Origin: a virus
Reading direction: 5' to 3' (one strand)
Virus record (IMG/VR): IMGVR_UViG_3300030406_001071
Span: 1-22,573 of that record
DNA length: 22,573 nt
Shown: piece after piece, positions 14,273 to 22,501 of the stretch
Layout: each line of letters begins with the position of its first letter
Position numbering within the stretch: the first letter of the stretch is position 1
The notes under the pieces: model-generated
Seen by the model: the letters and a program-made list of their open reading frames with translations, nothing else
What the model was told of the DNA's origin: nothing
The model's database searches: none
Made by a program: the position numbers and the translations under genes

Positions 14273-14821
14273 TCAGTGCATTACAGGCCGACTTAATTCA
14301 CCAATAACATCATTCTTATCTACAACGCAACGCTCAAATCGCATGAAAGTATGACTGTTTATTTCATACATACTTTCATCGAATGTGAACCCGCACCAAC
14401 TCAACCACATAATCGTGTCGTGATGATCGGCAGGAACAAAGTTTTCTATGCTATGATAATCGCCTTGAAGCAGTTCTATGGTTGGGCGACATCCCCTAAG
14501 AAATGGACGAAAGTTATAGTTGATTGCATTAGTACCAAGCAACCAAATGCGTCCTTGGTTGTTGTCTATAGGCACACTTCCACACATCCCGATAGGCGTA
14601 TCATCAAGTCTGAGTGTGTAGGTGATTGCACCGTGTATAACCATTGGCTCAGTAAGTGCCTCTAGCGGAGTCAGGTTGTGTATATAACACTCCCTGACAT
14701 CCGCTTTACGCATGTTATCAGCAACACGCTCGGCATGTTCGGGTAGGCTTTTTATTAACGAGAGCCTACCAACTCGTATGGCTTCATTAGCCATTTGAGA
14801 AGATGCGTCTAAAGCCATCAT
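14273..14821 (-). CDS. T7 gp13-like protein, DUF2833 / GNAT-like fold (182 aa)
   Basis: The protein begins MMALDASSQMANEAIRVGRL. The core has VADNMRKADVRECYIHNLTP, then GAITYTLRLDDTPIGMCGSV, GRIWLLGTNAINYNFRPFLR and HDTIMWLSWCGFTFDE, ending HTFMRFERCVV. This order (self-description strand, G-G turn, W-L-L-G-T, then a 'W..W.GF.F' motif) matches the DUF2833 / T7 gp13 family, which resembles GNAT acetyltransferases but in T7 serves virion morphogenesis. I see no clear acetyl-CoA loop. ATGs at 14821 and 14818 follow AAAGGAAG; a TTG at 14824 and a Met at 14794 are less likely. It overlaps the scaffold gene by 35 nt. Its place between scaffold and capsid differs from T7, where gene 13 lies after gene 12. 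Confidence 0.75.
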   Translation of the reverse strand: MMALDASSQMANEAIRVGRLSLIKSLPEHAERVADNMRKADVRECYIHNLTPLEALTEPMVIHGAITYTLRLDDTPIGMCGSVPIDNNQGRIWLLGTNAINYNFRPFLRGCRPTIELLQGDYHSIENFVPADHHDTIMWLSWCGFTFDESMYEINSHTFMRFERCVVDKNDVIGELSRPVMH

Positions 14822-15518
14822 CAACTTCCTTTACGAAAGTCGGATCTCTACGCGCTGGATCATGATAGCGTGGATCAAGCATCTTTTGTCTTAGGTCAGC
14901 TTCTGTTTCACGTGAAACTTCAACCGCACCGTTAGATGGGCCTCCTTCTCGCATGGCTTCCATCACATGTTCAAGTACCATAATGCCTTCTGCCGTTTCG
15001 CACATACGCTCTACAGCACCAAGCATTTCATCTGGGAAGAACTGATTAGCAAACAAACTAGCTGCTTCAGTCCTTGCGTTGGCATTATCGCCTAGCTTTG
15101 CAAGCTCTGCATCAAAGTCAGGAACATCAGCATTAATTGCCTGTGCATACATATCAATGCCTTCAGCAAACTCATCCTGACTGTAACCATTTTCAAATGC
15201 AGTCTTTGCCCACCATTGCAACAACGGATTGTCCGTTGCCATTTCATCATCAATGCTGTCAGGAAGAACATAATCGCCAACATCGGCTGGCCTATTTGCA
15301 TAGGCTTGCTCTTCCATTTCTTTCATAAACTGATCGCGGAATGCTTCTTCTTTAGCCCCAATCTTGCTTTCAAGGTTTGAGTAAGACTCAACCATGTCCT
15401 CAACAGACTTAAACTTCTCAGGCAGAGCAGCAAGCGGATCAGGTGCCGCTTCTGGCTCAAGCATCGGATTGCCACCCTCGGTTACAATACCGGAATCTTC
15501 TGCTTCAACTTCATTCAT
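14787..15518 (-). CDS. Capsid assembly scaffolding protein (243 aa)
   Basis: A 243-aa, very acidic, helix-rich protein. An N-terminal acidic and proline-rich region (PMLEPEAAPDPLAALPEKFK) leads into SVEDMVESYSNLESKIGAKE, a scaffold signature. The middle contains GDYVLPDSIDDEMATDNPLL and FAEGIDMYAQAINADVP, and the C-terminus is basic-amphipathic with DLRQKMLDPRYHDPARRDPT. T7 gp9-type scaffolds share this acidic N-terminus and small C-terminal capsid-binding helix. The gene follows the portal and the 87-aa gene (8-nt overlap) and precedes the capsid gene, the standard podovirus order. It is expected to be an internal core that leaves during head maturation. Confidence 0.88.
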   Translation of the reverse strand: MNEVEAEDSGIVTEGGNPMLEPEAAPDPLAALPEKFKSVEDMVESYSNLESKIGAKEEAFRDQFMKEMEEQAYANRPADVGDYVLPDSIDDEMATDNPLLQWWAKTAFENGYSQDEFAEGIDMYAQAINADVPDFDAELAKLGDNANARTEAASLFANQFFPDEMLGAVERMCETAEGIMVLEHVMEAMREGGPSNGAVEVSRETEADLRQKMLDPRYHDPARRDPTFVKEVDDGFRRIFSNG

Positions 15519-20001: not shown

Positions 20002-20329
20002 TAGATTTCTCCTTAGAACGCTGGTAAGAGGCTAACAAAGAACGACCCCTGCGTACAGCACTGGCCTTGTCACCACGATGCCCCCATGCCTCTAGTGAGA
20101 GCTTCAATCTGGTCTTCTTCCCATCCCGCATCAATGGCCCCTTGGCGCTGCCCATCCTTACCAAGAAGCTGCCCTTGCGCCGCTTCTTCTGTGGTGTGTC
20201 CGCCTTGGCCTTTACCGGGGCTTTGAGTTTGCCGCCGGTTTCCCGATTGTATGATGCGCGTCCGGCAGCGTTGAGGCCACCTTGAGGGTTCTGTCCTTCC
20301 TTGCGTTGCCATGCCGGTGTCTTTGCCAT
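19994..20329 (-). CDS. Basic conserved protein TPAWQRKEGQNPQGGLN (111 aa)
   Basis: A 111-aa basic protein: MAKTPAWQRKEGQNPQGGLN, then AAGRASYNRETGGKLKAPVK, KKRRKGSFLVRMGSAKGPLM and LSLEAWGHRGDKASAVRRGR. The 'WQRKEGxNPxGGLNxxGRxSYNRETGGxLKxPV' block followed by a 'RRKSFxxRM' block is a conserved phage family (I believe DUF6321, moderate confidence). The function is unknown; the charge suggests nucleic-acid contact. The ATG at 20329 overlaps the previous stop (TGATG), with AGGA 7 nt ahead. A TTG three bases upstream is less likely. Confidence 0.8.
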   Translation of the reverse strand: MAKTPAWQRKEGQNPQGGLNAAGRASYNRETGGKLKAPVKAKADTPQKKRRKGSFLVRMGSAKGPLMRDGKKTRLKLSLEAWGHRGDKASAVRRGRSLLASYQRSKEKSNA

Positions 20330-21012
20330 CAAACGTTCCTAAGATTCACAAGACTCTGACGAGTGCCAAAAGCAGTTCTGCGTCCGCCACCACGCCGACG
20401 ATTCGTCGTCAAAGTACCGCCACCCATCTGAGCAACTTCTACAACAGGCTCCTCAACCTTGGGCTTGGGAGCAGGAGGAGGCGTATCATCCTCTTGCTTC
20501 TTGGGAGCCATCGGATTCATGTCAGGACGCCCAGAGTAAACCCGGCCACCAAAAGGCCCCGGCTCGGTAACGCCAACAATAGAACCAGTCTTGGTCGTCA
20601 CAGGCTTCACACTATAGCTGGGCTTGTCACCCAGCTTGCCAATAGTCGGCGTGTCACTCTTCAACTTATCCATCAAACGAGCAGCAGAGGCAGTGCCAAT
20701 CGTATTCAATATACCGCCAACAGTGCCAGCCTTGCCCAAACCCTTAGTGCCTACAGTAGCCCTAGTCTGTAAATCACCAAGCTGCTCCTTGGTAATGTCA
20801 GAACGACCAGCAAGATTAGCCGCCGCAGTGTCACTGCCAGTAATCGCACGAGCAGCAGCAGGGCTAAGACCGCTAGCAGGTTTGTAACTTACGCCAACCT
20901 CACGCTGCTTGGCAGATGCAGGGCCAGTAAAATCCCTAGCAGCACCCTTGCGGACCCTCGGTGGGTTTAAATTTTCTGATGTCCCCCCGCCGGGGTCTCC
21001 GCCTGTACACAT
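20329..21012 (-). CDS. MCxGG low-complexity protein (227 aa)
   Basis: A 227-aa protein starting MCTGGDPGGGTSENLNPPRV. It is rich in Gly, Ala, Pro, Ser and Lys and probably largely disordered: an AAARAITGSDTAAANLAGRS helix, a GKAGTVGGILNTIGTASAAR segment, a Pro-rich acidic hinge (PPPAPKPKVEEPVVEVAQMG) and a final GGGTLTTNRRRGGGRRTAFG stretch. The MCxGG start and the GRR-containing tail echo the 72-aa protein next to the portal. It lies directly after the small terminase in the leftward unit. Codon use is more GC-rich than in the fibre and ejection genes. A virion or packaging accessory role is possible; I cannot identify the function. Confidence 0.75.
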   Translation of the reverse strand: MCTGGDPGGGTSENLNPPRVRKGAARDFTGPASAKQREVGVSYKPASGLSPAAARAITGSDTAAANLAGRSDITKEQLGDLQTRATVGTKGLGKAGTVGGILNTIGTASAARLMDKLKSDTPTIGKLGDKPSYSVKPVTTKTGSIVGVTEPGPFGGRVYSGRPDMNPMAPKKQEDDTPPPAPKPKVEEPVVEVAQMGGGTLTTNRRRGGGRRTAFGTRQSLVNLRNV

Positions 21013-21084
21013 GCTTTTTTTGCCTCTAATGTCTGTGTGGTACTACGTCACACTGGCATAGCCACACTTTTGGGGGCACCCCCA

Positions 21085-21456
21085 CTATGTCAGGTCTATG
21101 CTCACCTTAATTTCCCCAGCATGCAAGTGCATCTGCTTATCGGCTGGCTTGAAGCCAGCACGATCGAGTATGTCCTTGCTAGCTTCTAGCTGGACATACT
21201 CGGACTTAGCGCCTCGCGCTAAGCCAAGCAGCTTAGCAGCAGCCGTCGTAGCATGTAGTCCAAGACTCTCACCGACTCTTGTCATCATGTACTGCTGCAC
21301 ATGCGGCTGTCGCAAAGCCTTACTGGCACTCACTCTCCCGGCTTCACCCTCTGCGTATCCGGCTTTGCCAGCCGCTTCCTTGATGCTACATCCATCAGCT
21401 ACGAGCGTATCCACCAGAGCCATCTGTTTATCGGTTAGTATCTTAGCTACTGTCAT
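21085..21456 (-). CDS. terS: Terminase small subunit-like DNA-binding protein (123 aa)
   Basis: Starting at ATG 21456 the protein reads MTVAKILTDKQMALVDTLVA. A helix-turn-helix of the small-terminase type follows (GCSIKEAAGKAGYAEGEAGR, then VSASKALRQPHVQQYMM), a helical oligomerisation region (LHATTAAAKLLGLARGAKSE), and LEASKDILDRAGFKPADKQM near the C-terminus. In this family it recognises the viral packaging site and hands DNA to the large subunit. An in-frame ATG at 21519 would add 21 residues (MGLTDRQVWGGTQGGQQSGL and onward) spanning two G7 tracts. I prefer 21456 because the family normally begins just before the LTDKQ motif, though its Shine-Dalgarno (AGG, 7 nt) is weak. Three consecutive hairpins lie within the 3' half of the gene. 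Confidence 0.82.
   Translation of the reverse strand: MTVAKILTDKQMALVDTLVADGCSIKEAAGKAGYAEGEAGRVSASKALRQPHVQQYMMTRVGESLGLHATTAAAKLLGLARGAKSEYVQLEASKDILDRAGFKPADKQMHLHAGEIKVSIDLT
21143..21223. repeat. Cluster of three perfect inverted repeats inside terS
   Basis: Repeat 1 is GCTGGCTT / AAGCCAGC around a single G (21143-21159). Repeat 2 is CGAGTATGTCC / GGACATACTCG (21165-21175 and 21192-21202), enclosing an inner GCTAG / CTAGC with a CTT loop. Repeat 3 is CTTAGCGC / GCGCTAAG with a CTC loop (21205-21223). They are separated by 5 and 2 nt. Confidence 0.9.
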
Positions 21457-21474: not shown

Positions 21475-21494
21475 CCCCCCCTGTGTTCCCCCCC
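21475..21494 (-). other. Two G7 tracts upstream of terS
   Basis: The minus strand carries seven consecutive G at 21494-21488 and again at 21481-21475, separated by AACACA. They lie 19-38 bases upstream of the preferred terS ATG and would be in frame if the upstream ATG (21519) were used. Confidence 0.7.
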
Positions 21495-21507
21495 AGACTT
21501 GCCGATC

Positions 21508-21527
21508 TGTCAACCCCATGTCAACCC
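21508..21527 (-). promoter_or_regulatory. Tandem GGGTTGACA direct repeats upstream of terS
   Basis: The minus strand reads GGGTTGACA at 21527-21519 and again at 21516-21508, an 11-base (one helical turn) spacing. Each contains a consensus -35-like TTGACA, but I find no acceptable -10 at 16-18 bases. An operator or activator site for the leftward late unit is therefore at least as likely as a sigma-70 promoter. Confidence 0.4.
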
Positions 21528-21557: not shown

Positions 21558-21782
21558 TCAGCACCTGTTCTGTGCGCGTGGCCTATGTACGCGCCAGCGG
21601 CCGTTGCGACAGCACAGCAGTCTGTAGACTGCTGCACTGACGGACGTTGCGCGGCGCATTGCAACACGCGCAGGACACGGGGGATATATCCTCACAAATA
21701 CCTGCACATACACAAAAGAGCAGACTGCGAGAAAAGCTGGCGGCCAGAACCTTGACAAGTCCACATTTGCTAGCATTGACAT
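21558..21782 (-). CDS. Doubtful small membrane-type protein (74 aa)
   Basis: The ATG at 21782 has AGGAG 4 nt ahead (or 10 nt ahead of the next ATG at 21776). The product would start MSMLANVDLSRF and contain one hydrophobic segment (WPPAFLAVCSFVYVQVFVRI), followed by an Arg/Cys-rich tail. Against it, the tail (LLCCRNGRWRVHRPRAQNRC) has the amino-acid bias of non-coding GC-rich DNA, and a strong dyad lies inside it. If real, a holin-like or small envelope protein would be possible, but the frame could equally be chance. Confidence 0.25.
   Translation of the reverse strand: MSMLANVDLSRFWPPAFLAVCSFVYVQVFVRIYPPCPARVAMRRATSVSAAVYRLLCCRNGRWRVHRPRAQNRC
21615..21634. repeat. 9-bp dyad CAGCAGTCT / AGACTGCTG
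   Basis: A perfect inverted repeat with a 2-bp centre. It could be a dimeric repressor operator as DNA, or an 8-bp hairpin with a TGTA loop as RNA. Confidence 0.6.
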
Positions 21783-21899
21783 AGCACTCCTAACCAAAGA
21801 AACGACCCAATCCGCCAAGAACAACCAACGCATCACAGCGGCCTCTTTGCACCCGCGCTGGTCGCGCGTATCAAGTCTCGCCCATGCTCAGTTTGCTGC

Positions 21900-21979
21900 C
21901 CAGCCCGCGCTTATTGGCCCGCGCTTTTATTTGCGCTGCCGCGCAAGCGGGCCGGTGCGCATCCGCGCAAGCGGGCTGG
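21900..21979. repeat. Two-tier GC-rich palindrome with direct repeats
   Basis: The outer arms CCAGCCCGC (21900-21908) and GCGGGCTGG (21971-21979) are perfect complements. Nested inside, GGCCCGC (21916-21922) pairs with GCGGGCC (21947-21953), and TTGCGC / GCGCAA pair around a TGCC loop (21931-21946), leaving an 8-nt bulge. The arms derive from direct repeats: GCCCGCGCTT twice (21903, 21917) and CCGCGCAAGCGGGC twice (21939, 21963; 24-bp period). Confidence 0.8.
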
Positions 21980-22046
21980 ATCAAACTGGCATGCCGGCCG
22001 AGCCTGACTTGATTGCAGAGGCTGCTGTGATTGCGGGTTGTTCGTA

Positions 22047-22065
22047 AGGCGGGATTGTCTCGCCT
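22047..22065 (+). promoter_or_regulatory. Hairpin directly before the ribosome-binding site of the 138-aa gene
   Basis: AGGCGGGA and TCTCGCCT pair (8 bp, one G-U) around a TTG loop, 7 nt before AAGGAG. A CTCTTTG sequence follows, too poor in T for a confident terminator. It may be a 5' stabiliser, an attenuator or an RNase processing site. Confidence 0.4.
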
Positions 22066-22084
22066 CTTTGCTAAGGAGTGACTA

Positions 22085-22501
22085 ATGTCAAAGCAATCAA
22101 ATGTAAATGGACTTGCCAAGAACCTGACCACCATCTTTTCTCTTGCTGCTCTTGAGGACAGAAACACAACATCTCGTTCGGTTCAGTATCACATGCAGAA
22201 GTTCATCGATCATCTGGAATGGTCAATCAACAGACACGAACAGAAGAAGACAGAGATCTTCGACAAGGGCGTTGAGATGAACGCAAACAGAGCAGGTGAC
22301 GTCGAAGGCGCACCTGCTTACGATGCGGGTCAGCTGCTTCAGTGGGAGCGTGACTGGAACTGGTACAACGATCAGCAGAACGTTGCTGAAGAGATGCGTA
22401 CCTACTTCAAAGAAGCACAGAAGCAGTGCTTCCCACAGGAGGTCAAGATCTCAGAGCAGAACGCTGCCGCAGCATCTGCCTTCTTCACCAAGTCAGCCTA
22501 A
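22085..22501 (+). CDS. Unknown protein, sole plus-strand gene (138 aa)
   Basis: A 138-aa protein beginning MSKQSNVNGLAKNLTTIFSL. It appears mainly helical: RSVQYHMQKFIDHLEWSINR, then EQKKTEIFDKGVEMNANRAG, a Trp/Tyr-rich LLQWERDWNWYNDQQ, EMRTYFKEAQKQCFPQEVKI and an Ala-rich end. There is no signal peptide, membrane segment or enzyme motif, and I do not recognise the family. AAGGAG lies 6 nt before the ATG, and an intrinsic terminator follows 12 nt after the stop, so it can be expressed as a single-gene or last-gene transcript. It uses C-ending codons (AAC, TAC, GAC, ATC) heavily, like the capsid gene, suggesting high expression. Opposite orientation to the late genes suggests a different time of expression; this is inference. 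Confidence 0.85.
   Translation: MSKQSNVNGLAKNLTTIFSLAALEDRNTTSRSVQYHMQKFIDHLEWSINRHEQKKTEIFDKGVEMNANRAGDVEGAPAYDAGQLLQWERDWNWYNDQQNVAEEMRTYFKEAQKQCFPQEVKISEQNAAAASAFFTKSA

What the first reader, a model, noticed from the sequence alone, without database searches (positions are those of the whole stretch)
21143..21223. Three back-to-back perfect hairpins inside the small terminase gene
Within 81 bp the sequence holds a 6-8-bp inverted repeat, then an 11-bp perfect inverted repeat enclosing a 5-bp one, then an 8-bp one with a triloop, with only 5 and 2 nt between them. By rough count, a single 11-bp arm pair with a short spacer is expected less than once in a window this size, so three adjacent ones are unlikely to be chance. 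Packaging (pac/cos) sites of several phages lie in or next to the small terminase gene, so this could be the site bound by the protein it encodes. It could alternatively be an mRNA structure that tunes terminase levels or hides an internal signal.
Basis: partly seen in the sequence, partly recalled or inferred. Interest (0 to 1): 0.72.

Follow-up and report, generated by a model that had tools for sequence, protein, structure and literature searches.

The report
Selected RNA-like fold in terminase gene
Inside the gene for the small DNA-packaging protein of an uncultured phage lies a stable fold, three hairpins closed by a fourth stem, whose paired bases change together in related phages, so evolution is keeping the shape itself; it is most likely a control element in the messenger RNA, but what it controls has not been shown.

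Summary
At 21143-21223, inside terS (minus strand), lie three adjacent hairpins; no dinucleotide shuffle of the window had even two such repeats together. About twenty IMG/VR contigs plus the window carry it. It is far more stable than synonymous-codon shuffles (z -5.6 to -8.7). Its stems covary at silent positions: an Ala/Gly third-base pair occurs as all four Watson-Crick pairs and never unpaired; a Leu/Ala pair likewise as three. Silent sites are constrained only there. The protein does not force this: about 236 other sequences with the same invariant peptide lack the full fold. A phage 91-98% identical in many genes carries a different terS allele without it. The structure is therefore real and selected, but allele-specific. 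That argues against an obligatory packaging site; contig ends do not pile up there, and arbitrary pairing suits single-strand folding better than TerS reading double-stranded DNA. Best guess: a cis-acting mRNA structure near the start of the late transcript (about 0.5). Rivals: DNA hairpin or pac, antitermination RNA, replication or recombination hairpin. No Rfam match. RNA versus DNA is undecided.

The parts
21132..21232 (-). whole multibranch fold: closing stem P1 plus three hairpins, within the terS coding sequence
   Evidence: fold; covariation; CM hit 130.8 bits at 21124-21234 (the window's own sequence is in the model)
21226..21231 (-). P1 closing stem, 5' arm (CTGCTT); pairs with 21133-21138; one more pair (21232/21132) in most relatives but mismatched here
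   Evidence: CG 15 / TA 4 at col 33-131; two pairs with changes on both sides
21133..21138 (-). P1 closing stem, 3' arm (AAGCAG)
21205..21223 (-). hairpin H1, 8 bp with triloop; Ala/Gly third-base pair seen as all four Watson-Crick types
21165..21202 (-). hairpin H2, 11-bp outer stem with A / AA internal loop and 5-bp inner stem (21178-21190); Leu/Ala third-base pair AT/CG/GC
   Evidence: outer stem nearly complete, with the inner pair kept, also in the KPIDRSQV clade and L112/L124
21140..21163 (-). hairpin H3, core 21143-21159, extended with one bulged base; the bulge moves between relatives while pairing is kept
21085..21456 (-). terS, small terminase (123 aa from the likely start ATG at 21456; the longest ORF starts at 21519)
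   Evidence: PHROG, Pfam Terminase_2, PDB TerS 6w7t/7joq; alignment of relatives; promoter position
21475..21524 (-). inferred late promoter and 5' leader: TTGACA 21524-21519, 17 nt, -10 place 21501-21496, then G7 (21494-21488) N6 G7 (21481-21475)
   Evidence: same arrangement in the relatives read; two G6+ runs in 148 of 200 loci; no canonical promoter found by scan in the window itself
20329..21012 (-). next late gene (227 aa, unknown), fast-evolving and often replaced between close relatives

Best explanation
The 101-nt block is a cis-acting structured element embedded in the terS coding sequence, most likely working as RNA in the late mRNA. Shown: the sequence folds far better than its codons require, its stems are kept by compensating silent changes, silent sites inside it are constrained, it occurs once per genome, always in terS, and it belongs to one class of terS alleles. 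Inferred: transcription starts just upstream of terS, so the fold sits roughly 260-360 nt into the long late transcript, where an unusually stable multibranch structure with tiny, unconserved loops acts through its stability. The likeliest action is to slow or limit ribosomes, or to set where the message is cut and how long it lasts, and so tune the small amount of TerS relative to the abundant head and tail proteins made from the same transcript.
For: Codon-shuffle z -5.6 to -8.7 in 19 distinct sequences, with the rest of the family far weaker. Top two covarying third-position pairs in the class are exactly stem pairs, 100% Watson-Crick. 22 cells changed on both sides against 5.9 in shuffles, 0 of 500 shuffles reach it; sliding the partners destroys pairing. 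P1, whose arms lie about 90-100 nt apart, also covaries: this suggests one strand folding as a whole, not separate dyad sites. Silent-site identity 0.67-0.79 inside against 0.32-0.66 outside, no such rise in other alleles. Changes agree on independent branches: H1 2 of 2, H2 3 of 3, P1 1 of 1. Position just downstream of an inferred late promoter. No T-run terminator at the hairpins.
Against: No true G-U pairs in the covarying silent pairs, where an RNA would tolerate them; a DNA hairpin predicts this better, though the sample is small. Ribosomes translating terS would unfold the structure. Loops show no protein-recognition motif. Independent branch changes are few, so the sign test cannot reach significance alone. 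No transcript or probing data were available.
Confidence: 0.5

Rival explanations
1. Packaging signal: the block is the pac (or cos) site that TerS recognises in DNA, perhaps as extruded cruciforms, carried inside its own gene as in P22 and SPP1.
For: pac lies in terS in P22 and overlaps gene 1 in SPP1 (PMC9611059; PMC6316719). TerS alleles appear to be swapped together with the structure, as expected if protein and site travel as a cassette. Near-full-length contigs break at many positions and the genome of a close relative carries an ERF recombinase, which suits headful packaging. No G-U pairs.
Against: Phage G008 is 91-98% identical to G001 in TerL, portal, capsid and others but has no such fold. 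All four Watson-Crick pairs are accepted at one site, which base reading of duplex DNA does not explain. Contig ends do not cluster at it. The known pac of P22 is a 22-bp asymmetric sequence.
Confidence: 0.2
2. Transcription element: an RNA near the start of the late operon that modifies RNA polymerase (put-like antiterminator) or pauses it, so that the long late operon is read through.
For: Position about 0.3 kb after the inferred late promoter at the head of an operon running the length of the window; multi-hairpin RNA with a closing stem.
Against: Lies in a coding sequence, absent from close relatives with the same operon; no Rfam match at any threshold used; put-like anatomy recalled from general knowledge, not tested.
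Confidence: 0.12
3. Single-stranded DNA hairpins used in replication or recombination, for example as a primase or primosome landing site, or as a break-prone spot that promotes swapping of the variable gene just downstream.
For: Triloop hairpins and lack of G-U pairs suit DNA; z -8.1 with DNA energies; terS and the next gene show replacement boundaries nearby.
Against: Sequence replacement in this region is also seen against an allele without hairpins (G008); no other element of this kind elsewhere in the genomes.
Confidence: 0.1
4. No present function: a by-product of codon choice or of the conserved peptide.
For: The peptide SEYVQLEASKD(I/L)LDRAG is nearly invariant, which fixes much of the nucleotide sequence.
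Against: About 236 cores with the same peptide lack the full fold; codon shuffles never reach it; covariation.
Confidence: 0.03

Closest known systems
P22 pac and SPP1 pac (packaging sites in or overlapping terS)
   Same: location in the small terminase gene of a tailed phage
   Different: those are duplex DNA sites (P22: 22 bp, asymmetric; SPP1: pacL/pacC/pacR at the DNA-binding-domain end of gene 1), not covarying hairpins; this block lies in the C-terminal half of terS
[quoted passage not shown]
   Same: a covarying fold inside an open reading frame, kept by silent changes
   Different: no terminase element is named in that paper's text; this one is allele-specific in an uncultured dsDNA phage group and has no Rfam family
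HK022 put antiterminator RNAs (from general knowledge)
   Same: cis-acting hairpin RNA near the start of a long phage operon
   Different: put elements are non-coding and two-hairpin; no sequence relation found here (no Rfam match)
phi29 pRNA (from general knowledge)
   Same: structured multi-helix RNA linked by location to packaging genes
   Different: pRNA is a separate noncoding RNA; no Rfam match, no evidence of a separate transcript

Membership tests
Conserved structured element within a coding sequence | more stable than codon-preserving shuffles | tested here: met
   z -5.6 to -8.7 in 19 sequences
Conserved structured element within a coding sequence | compensatory changes in stems at silent sites | tested here: met
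   few independent events
Conserved structured element within a coding sequence | acts as RNA | not testable with these tools
   needs probing or expression data
pac/cos site | genome ends or packaging start at the site | tested here: inconclusive
   contig ends scattered, not at the hairpins; no reads available
pac/cos site | present in all phages sharing the same terminase | tested here: inconclusive
   absent in G008, which shares 94% TerL identity, but its TerS differs (83%), so a changed TerS-site pair is not excluded
pac/cos site | bound by TerS | not testable with these tools
   binding assay needed
Intrinsic terminator | G+C stem followed by a T run | tested here: not met
   none found at the block
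Known Rfam RNA family | match to a covariance model | tested here: not met
   no match at gathering or E<=5
tRNA/tmRNA | ARAGORN match | tested here: not met

The most novel reading that the evidence does not exclude
The terS message carries a dual-use structured RNA that takes part directly in late-gene transcription or in packaging, an RNA partner of the terminase or of RNA polymerase encoded inside the terminase gene itself and exchanged between phages as an allele.
Probability: 0.12. Interest if true: 0.85.

Novelty: new member of a known kind. Interest (0 to 1): 0.5.

Why it matters
It is a well-supported case of a selected fold inside a small terminase gene, in a gene where packaging signals are usually sought as plain DNA sites. 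Because near-identical phages exist with and without it, the function can be tested by comparing natural alleles. It also warns that hairpins in terS need not be pac sites.

Tried and rejected
Protein constraint as the cause: rejected, since the same peptide is encoded without the fold in most relatives. Terminator: no T run. tRNA or Rfam RNA: none. Second copy or trans copy elsewhere in the genomes: none. Genome ends at the hairpins: contig ends scattered. A family-wide conserved long-range helix (codon 17 with codon 39) looked promising (45% Watson-Crick against 29% expected) but branch-independent pairs gave only 4.8 for and 1.2 against, not clearly better than controls, so it is not claimed. 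All-column covariation was dominated by amino-acid coupling, so third positions were used. G-U against A-C mismatches as a test of RNA against DNA: too few events to decide. Correlating type A with a partner gene: no gene was seen that goes with the fold in the ten genomes compared, but only four carry it. Phage records held no DNA relative and only one protein relative of TerS, Pelagibacter phage Hodr.

Full report
What is there. The real start is probably ATG 21456, because relatives share the protein from there and an inferred promoter lies just before it. A fourth stem, CTGCTT/AAGCAG, closes the three hairpins into one multibranch fold, -64.8 kcal/mol, z -6.8 as RNA and z -8.1 as DNA. In a scan of the window it is the strongest fold on either strand. 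Three perfect repeats within 85 nt never occurred in 40 shuffles of the window.

Is it selected? I collected terS relatives from IMG/VR and genome contigs, giving 255 distinct 162-nt cores aligned without gaps on the near-invariant peptide SEYVQLEASKD(I/L)LDRAG. A set of 19 distinct cores, called type A here, folds much better than 100 shuffles of each gene's own synonymous codons: z -5.6 to -8.7, no shuffle as good (a first pass). The signal is confined to the block. The next cores have z about -5 (two) and then fade into the bulk, whose mean is -1.4 at the block and near -0.1 to -0.5 over most of the rest of the gene. In type A the two strongest third-position couplings are the Leu/Ala pair inside H2 (A-T, C-G, G-C) and the Ala/Gly pair inside H1 (C-G, G-C, A-T, T-A), each Watson-Crick in every sequence. 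The closing stem changes as C-G to T-A together with its partner (15 against 4 sequences). H3 keeps its pairing while its bulge moves (CGT..CCAGCC against CGG..CCGCCC, sequences). Counted on 14 sequences: 22 cells changed on both sides against 5.9 in shuffles, 94.8% of cells paired, and 21-38% when partners are slid by 1 to 3 columns. Silent-site identity between divergent type A pairs is 0.67-0.79 within the block and 0.32-0.66 outside; other alleles show no such rise. H2 alone, nearly complete and with its inner pair kept, is also present in a second clade and in L112/L124.

Limits of that evidence. On a tree of type A made from sequence outside the block, the number of independent changes on well-supported branches is small: H1 2, H2 3, P1 1, all agreeing. 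The covariation is therefore clear in kind but comes from few events. Recombination may blur the tree. The type A label needs four changes on a short TerS tree, though one origin is not excluded. Type A was defined by its folding score, so the score itself is not independent evidence for the class; the covariation and silent-site constraint are.

Distribution. A covariance model finds one strong copy per type A genome, always in terS. Phage G008 shares 91-98% protein identity with type A phage G001 in TerL, portal, capsid and several other genes, yet its terS is 83% identical and has no fold. The nucleotide identity of the two genomes drops to 71-79% over the last two thirds of terS and lower in the next gene, then returns to about 90%. 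This looks like an allele swap. The function is thus either dispensable or met differently in the other alleles.

RNA or DNA? The pairing of any two complementary bases shows that a single strand folds. The closing stem, whose arms are about 90-100 nt apart, says the same. It does not say whether the strand is mRNA or DNA. For RNA: the block lies in a gene that is surely transcribed, about 0.3 kb after an inferred promoter. For DNA: there are no G-U pairs in the covarying silent pairs. I judge RNA likelier, mainly because a long-range closed multibranch fold is what mRNA forms readily and duplex DNA does not.

The packaging idea. In P22 pac is a 22-bp asymmetric sequence in terS, known mainly from genetics (PMC9611059); SPP1 pac overlaps gene 1 around its DNA-binding domain (PMC6316719). 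The present block encodes the C-terminal half of TerS. Near-full-length contigs break all round the genome, with some excess near terS but no pile at the hairpins, which together with the ERF recombinase of a close relative suits headful packaging but does not place pac here.

Novelty. No Rfam family matches and literature searches found no structured element in terS. Structured elements in viral coding regions are a known kind (PMC6563262). I file it as a new member of that kind, with its mechanism open.

Noticed in passing
window 21475-21524 (-); L356:13347, L357:15753, L360:15513, L365:8489, L368:2890 and others: A pair of G runs (G7 N6 G7 here) stands just upstream of terS; 148 of 200 loci have two G6+ runs there against a background of 0.125 G6/C6 runs per kb. 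In the relatives read it follows TTGACA plus about 17 nt plus an often ATAA-like hexamer, so the late mRNA may begin with the G runs: a candidate G-quadruplex leader or a site of reiterative initiation.
   Followed up: partly
window 21065-21084 (-) and the same place in type A loci: A further G run directly after the terS stop codon (GGGGGGTCAAAA-like), present in many relatives.
   Followed up: partly
window 21729-22142: Large imperfect inverted repeat between the divergent operons: a 35-nt arm pair (80%) whose right arm lies in the start of the 138-aa gene, a 15-nt arm pair, and a G+C-rich centre with two 24-nt direct repeats; a 290-nt part folds at -156 kcal/mol.
   Followed up: no
window 14342-14379 and about 14660-14720 (-): Two more strong hairpins inside the 183-aa ORF 14273-14824 (11-bp arms for the first; z -7.2 for the second); the second is kept in a near-identical relative, weaker in an 86% relative and absent in the more divergent ones.
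   Followed up: partly
window 20329-21012 (-): The gene after terS is hypervariable: 8-24% nucleotide identity over much of it between phages that are 95-99% identical in terS.
   Followed up: partly
L018, L048, L056 and other non-type-A terS loci: Other terS alleles show a weaker tendency to pair codons 10-19 with 38-46 in a long-range stem (mean z -1.4; codon 17-39 coupling), not significant on independent branches.
   Followed up: partly
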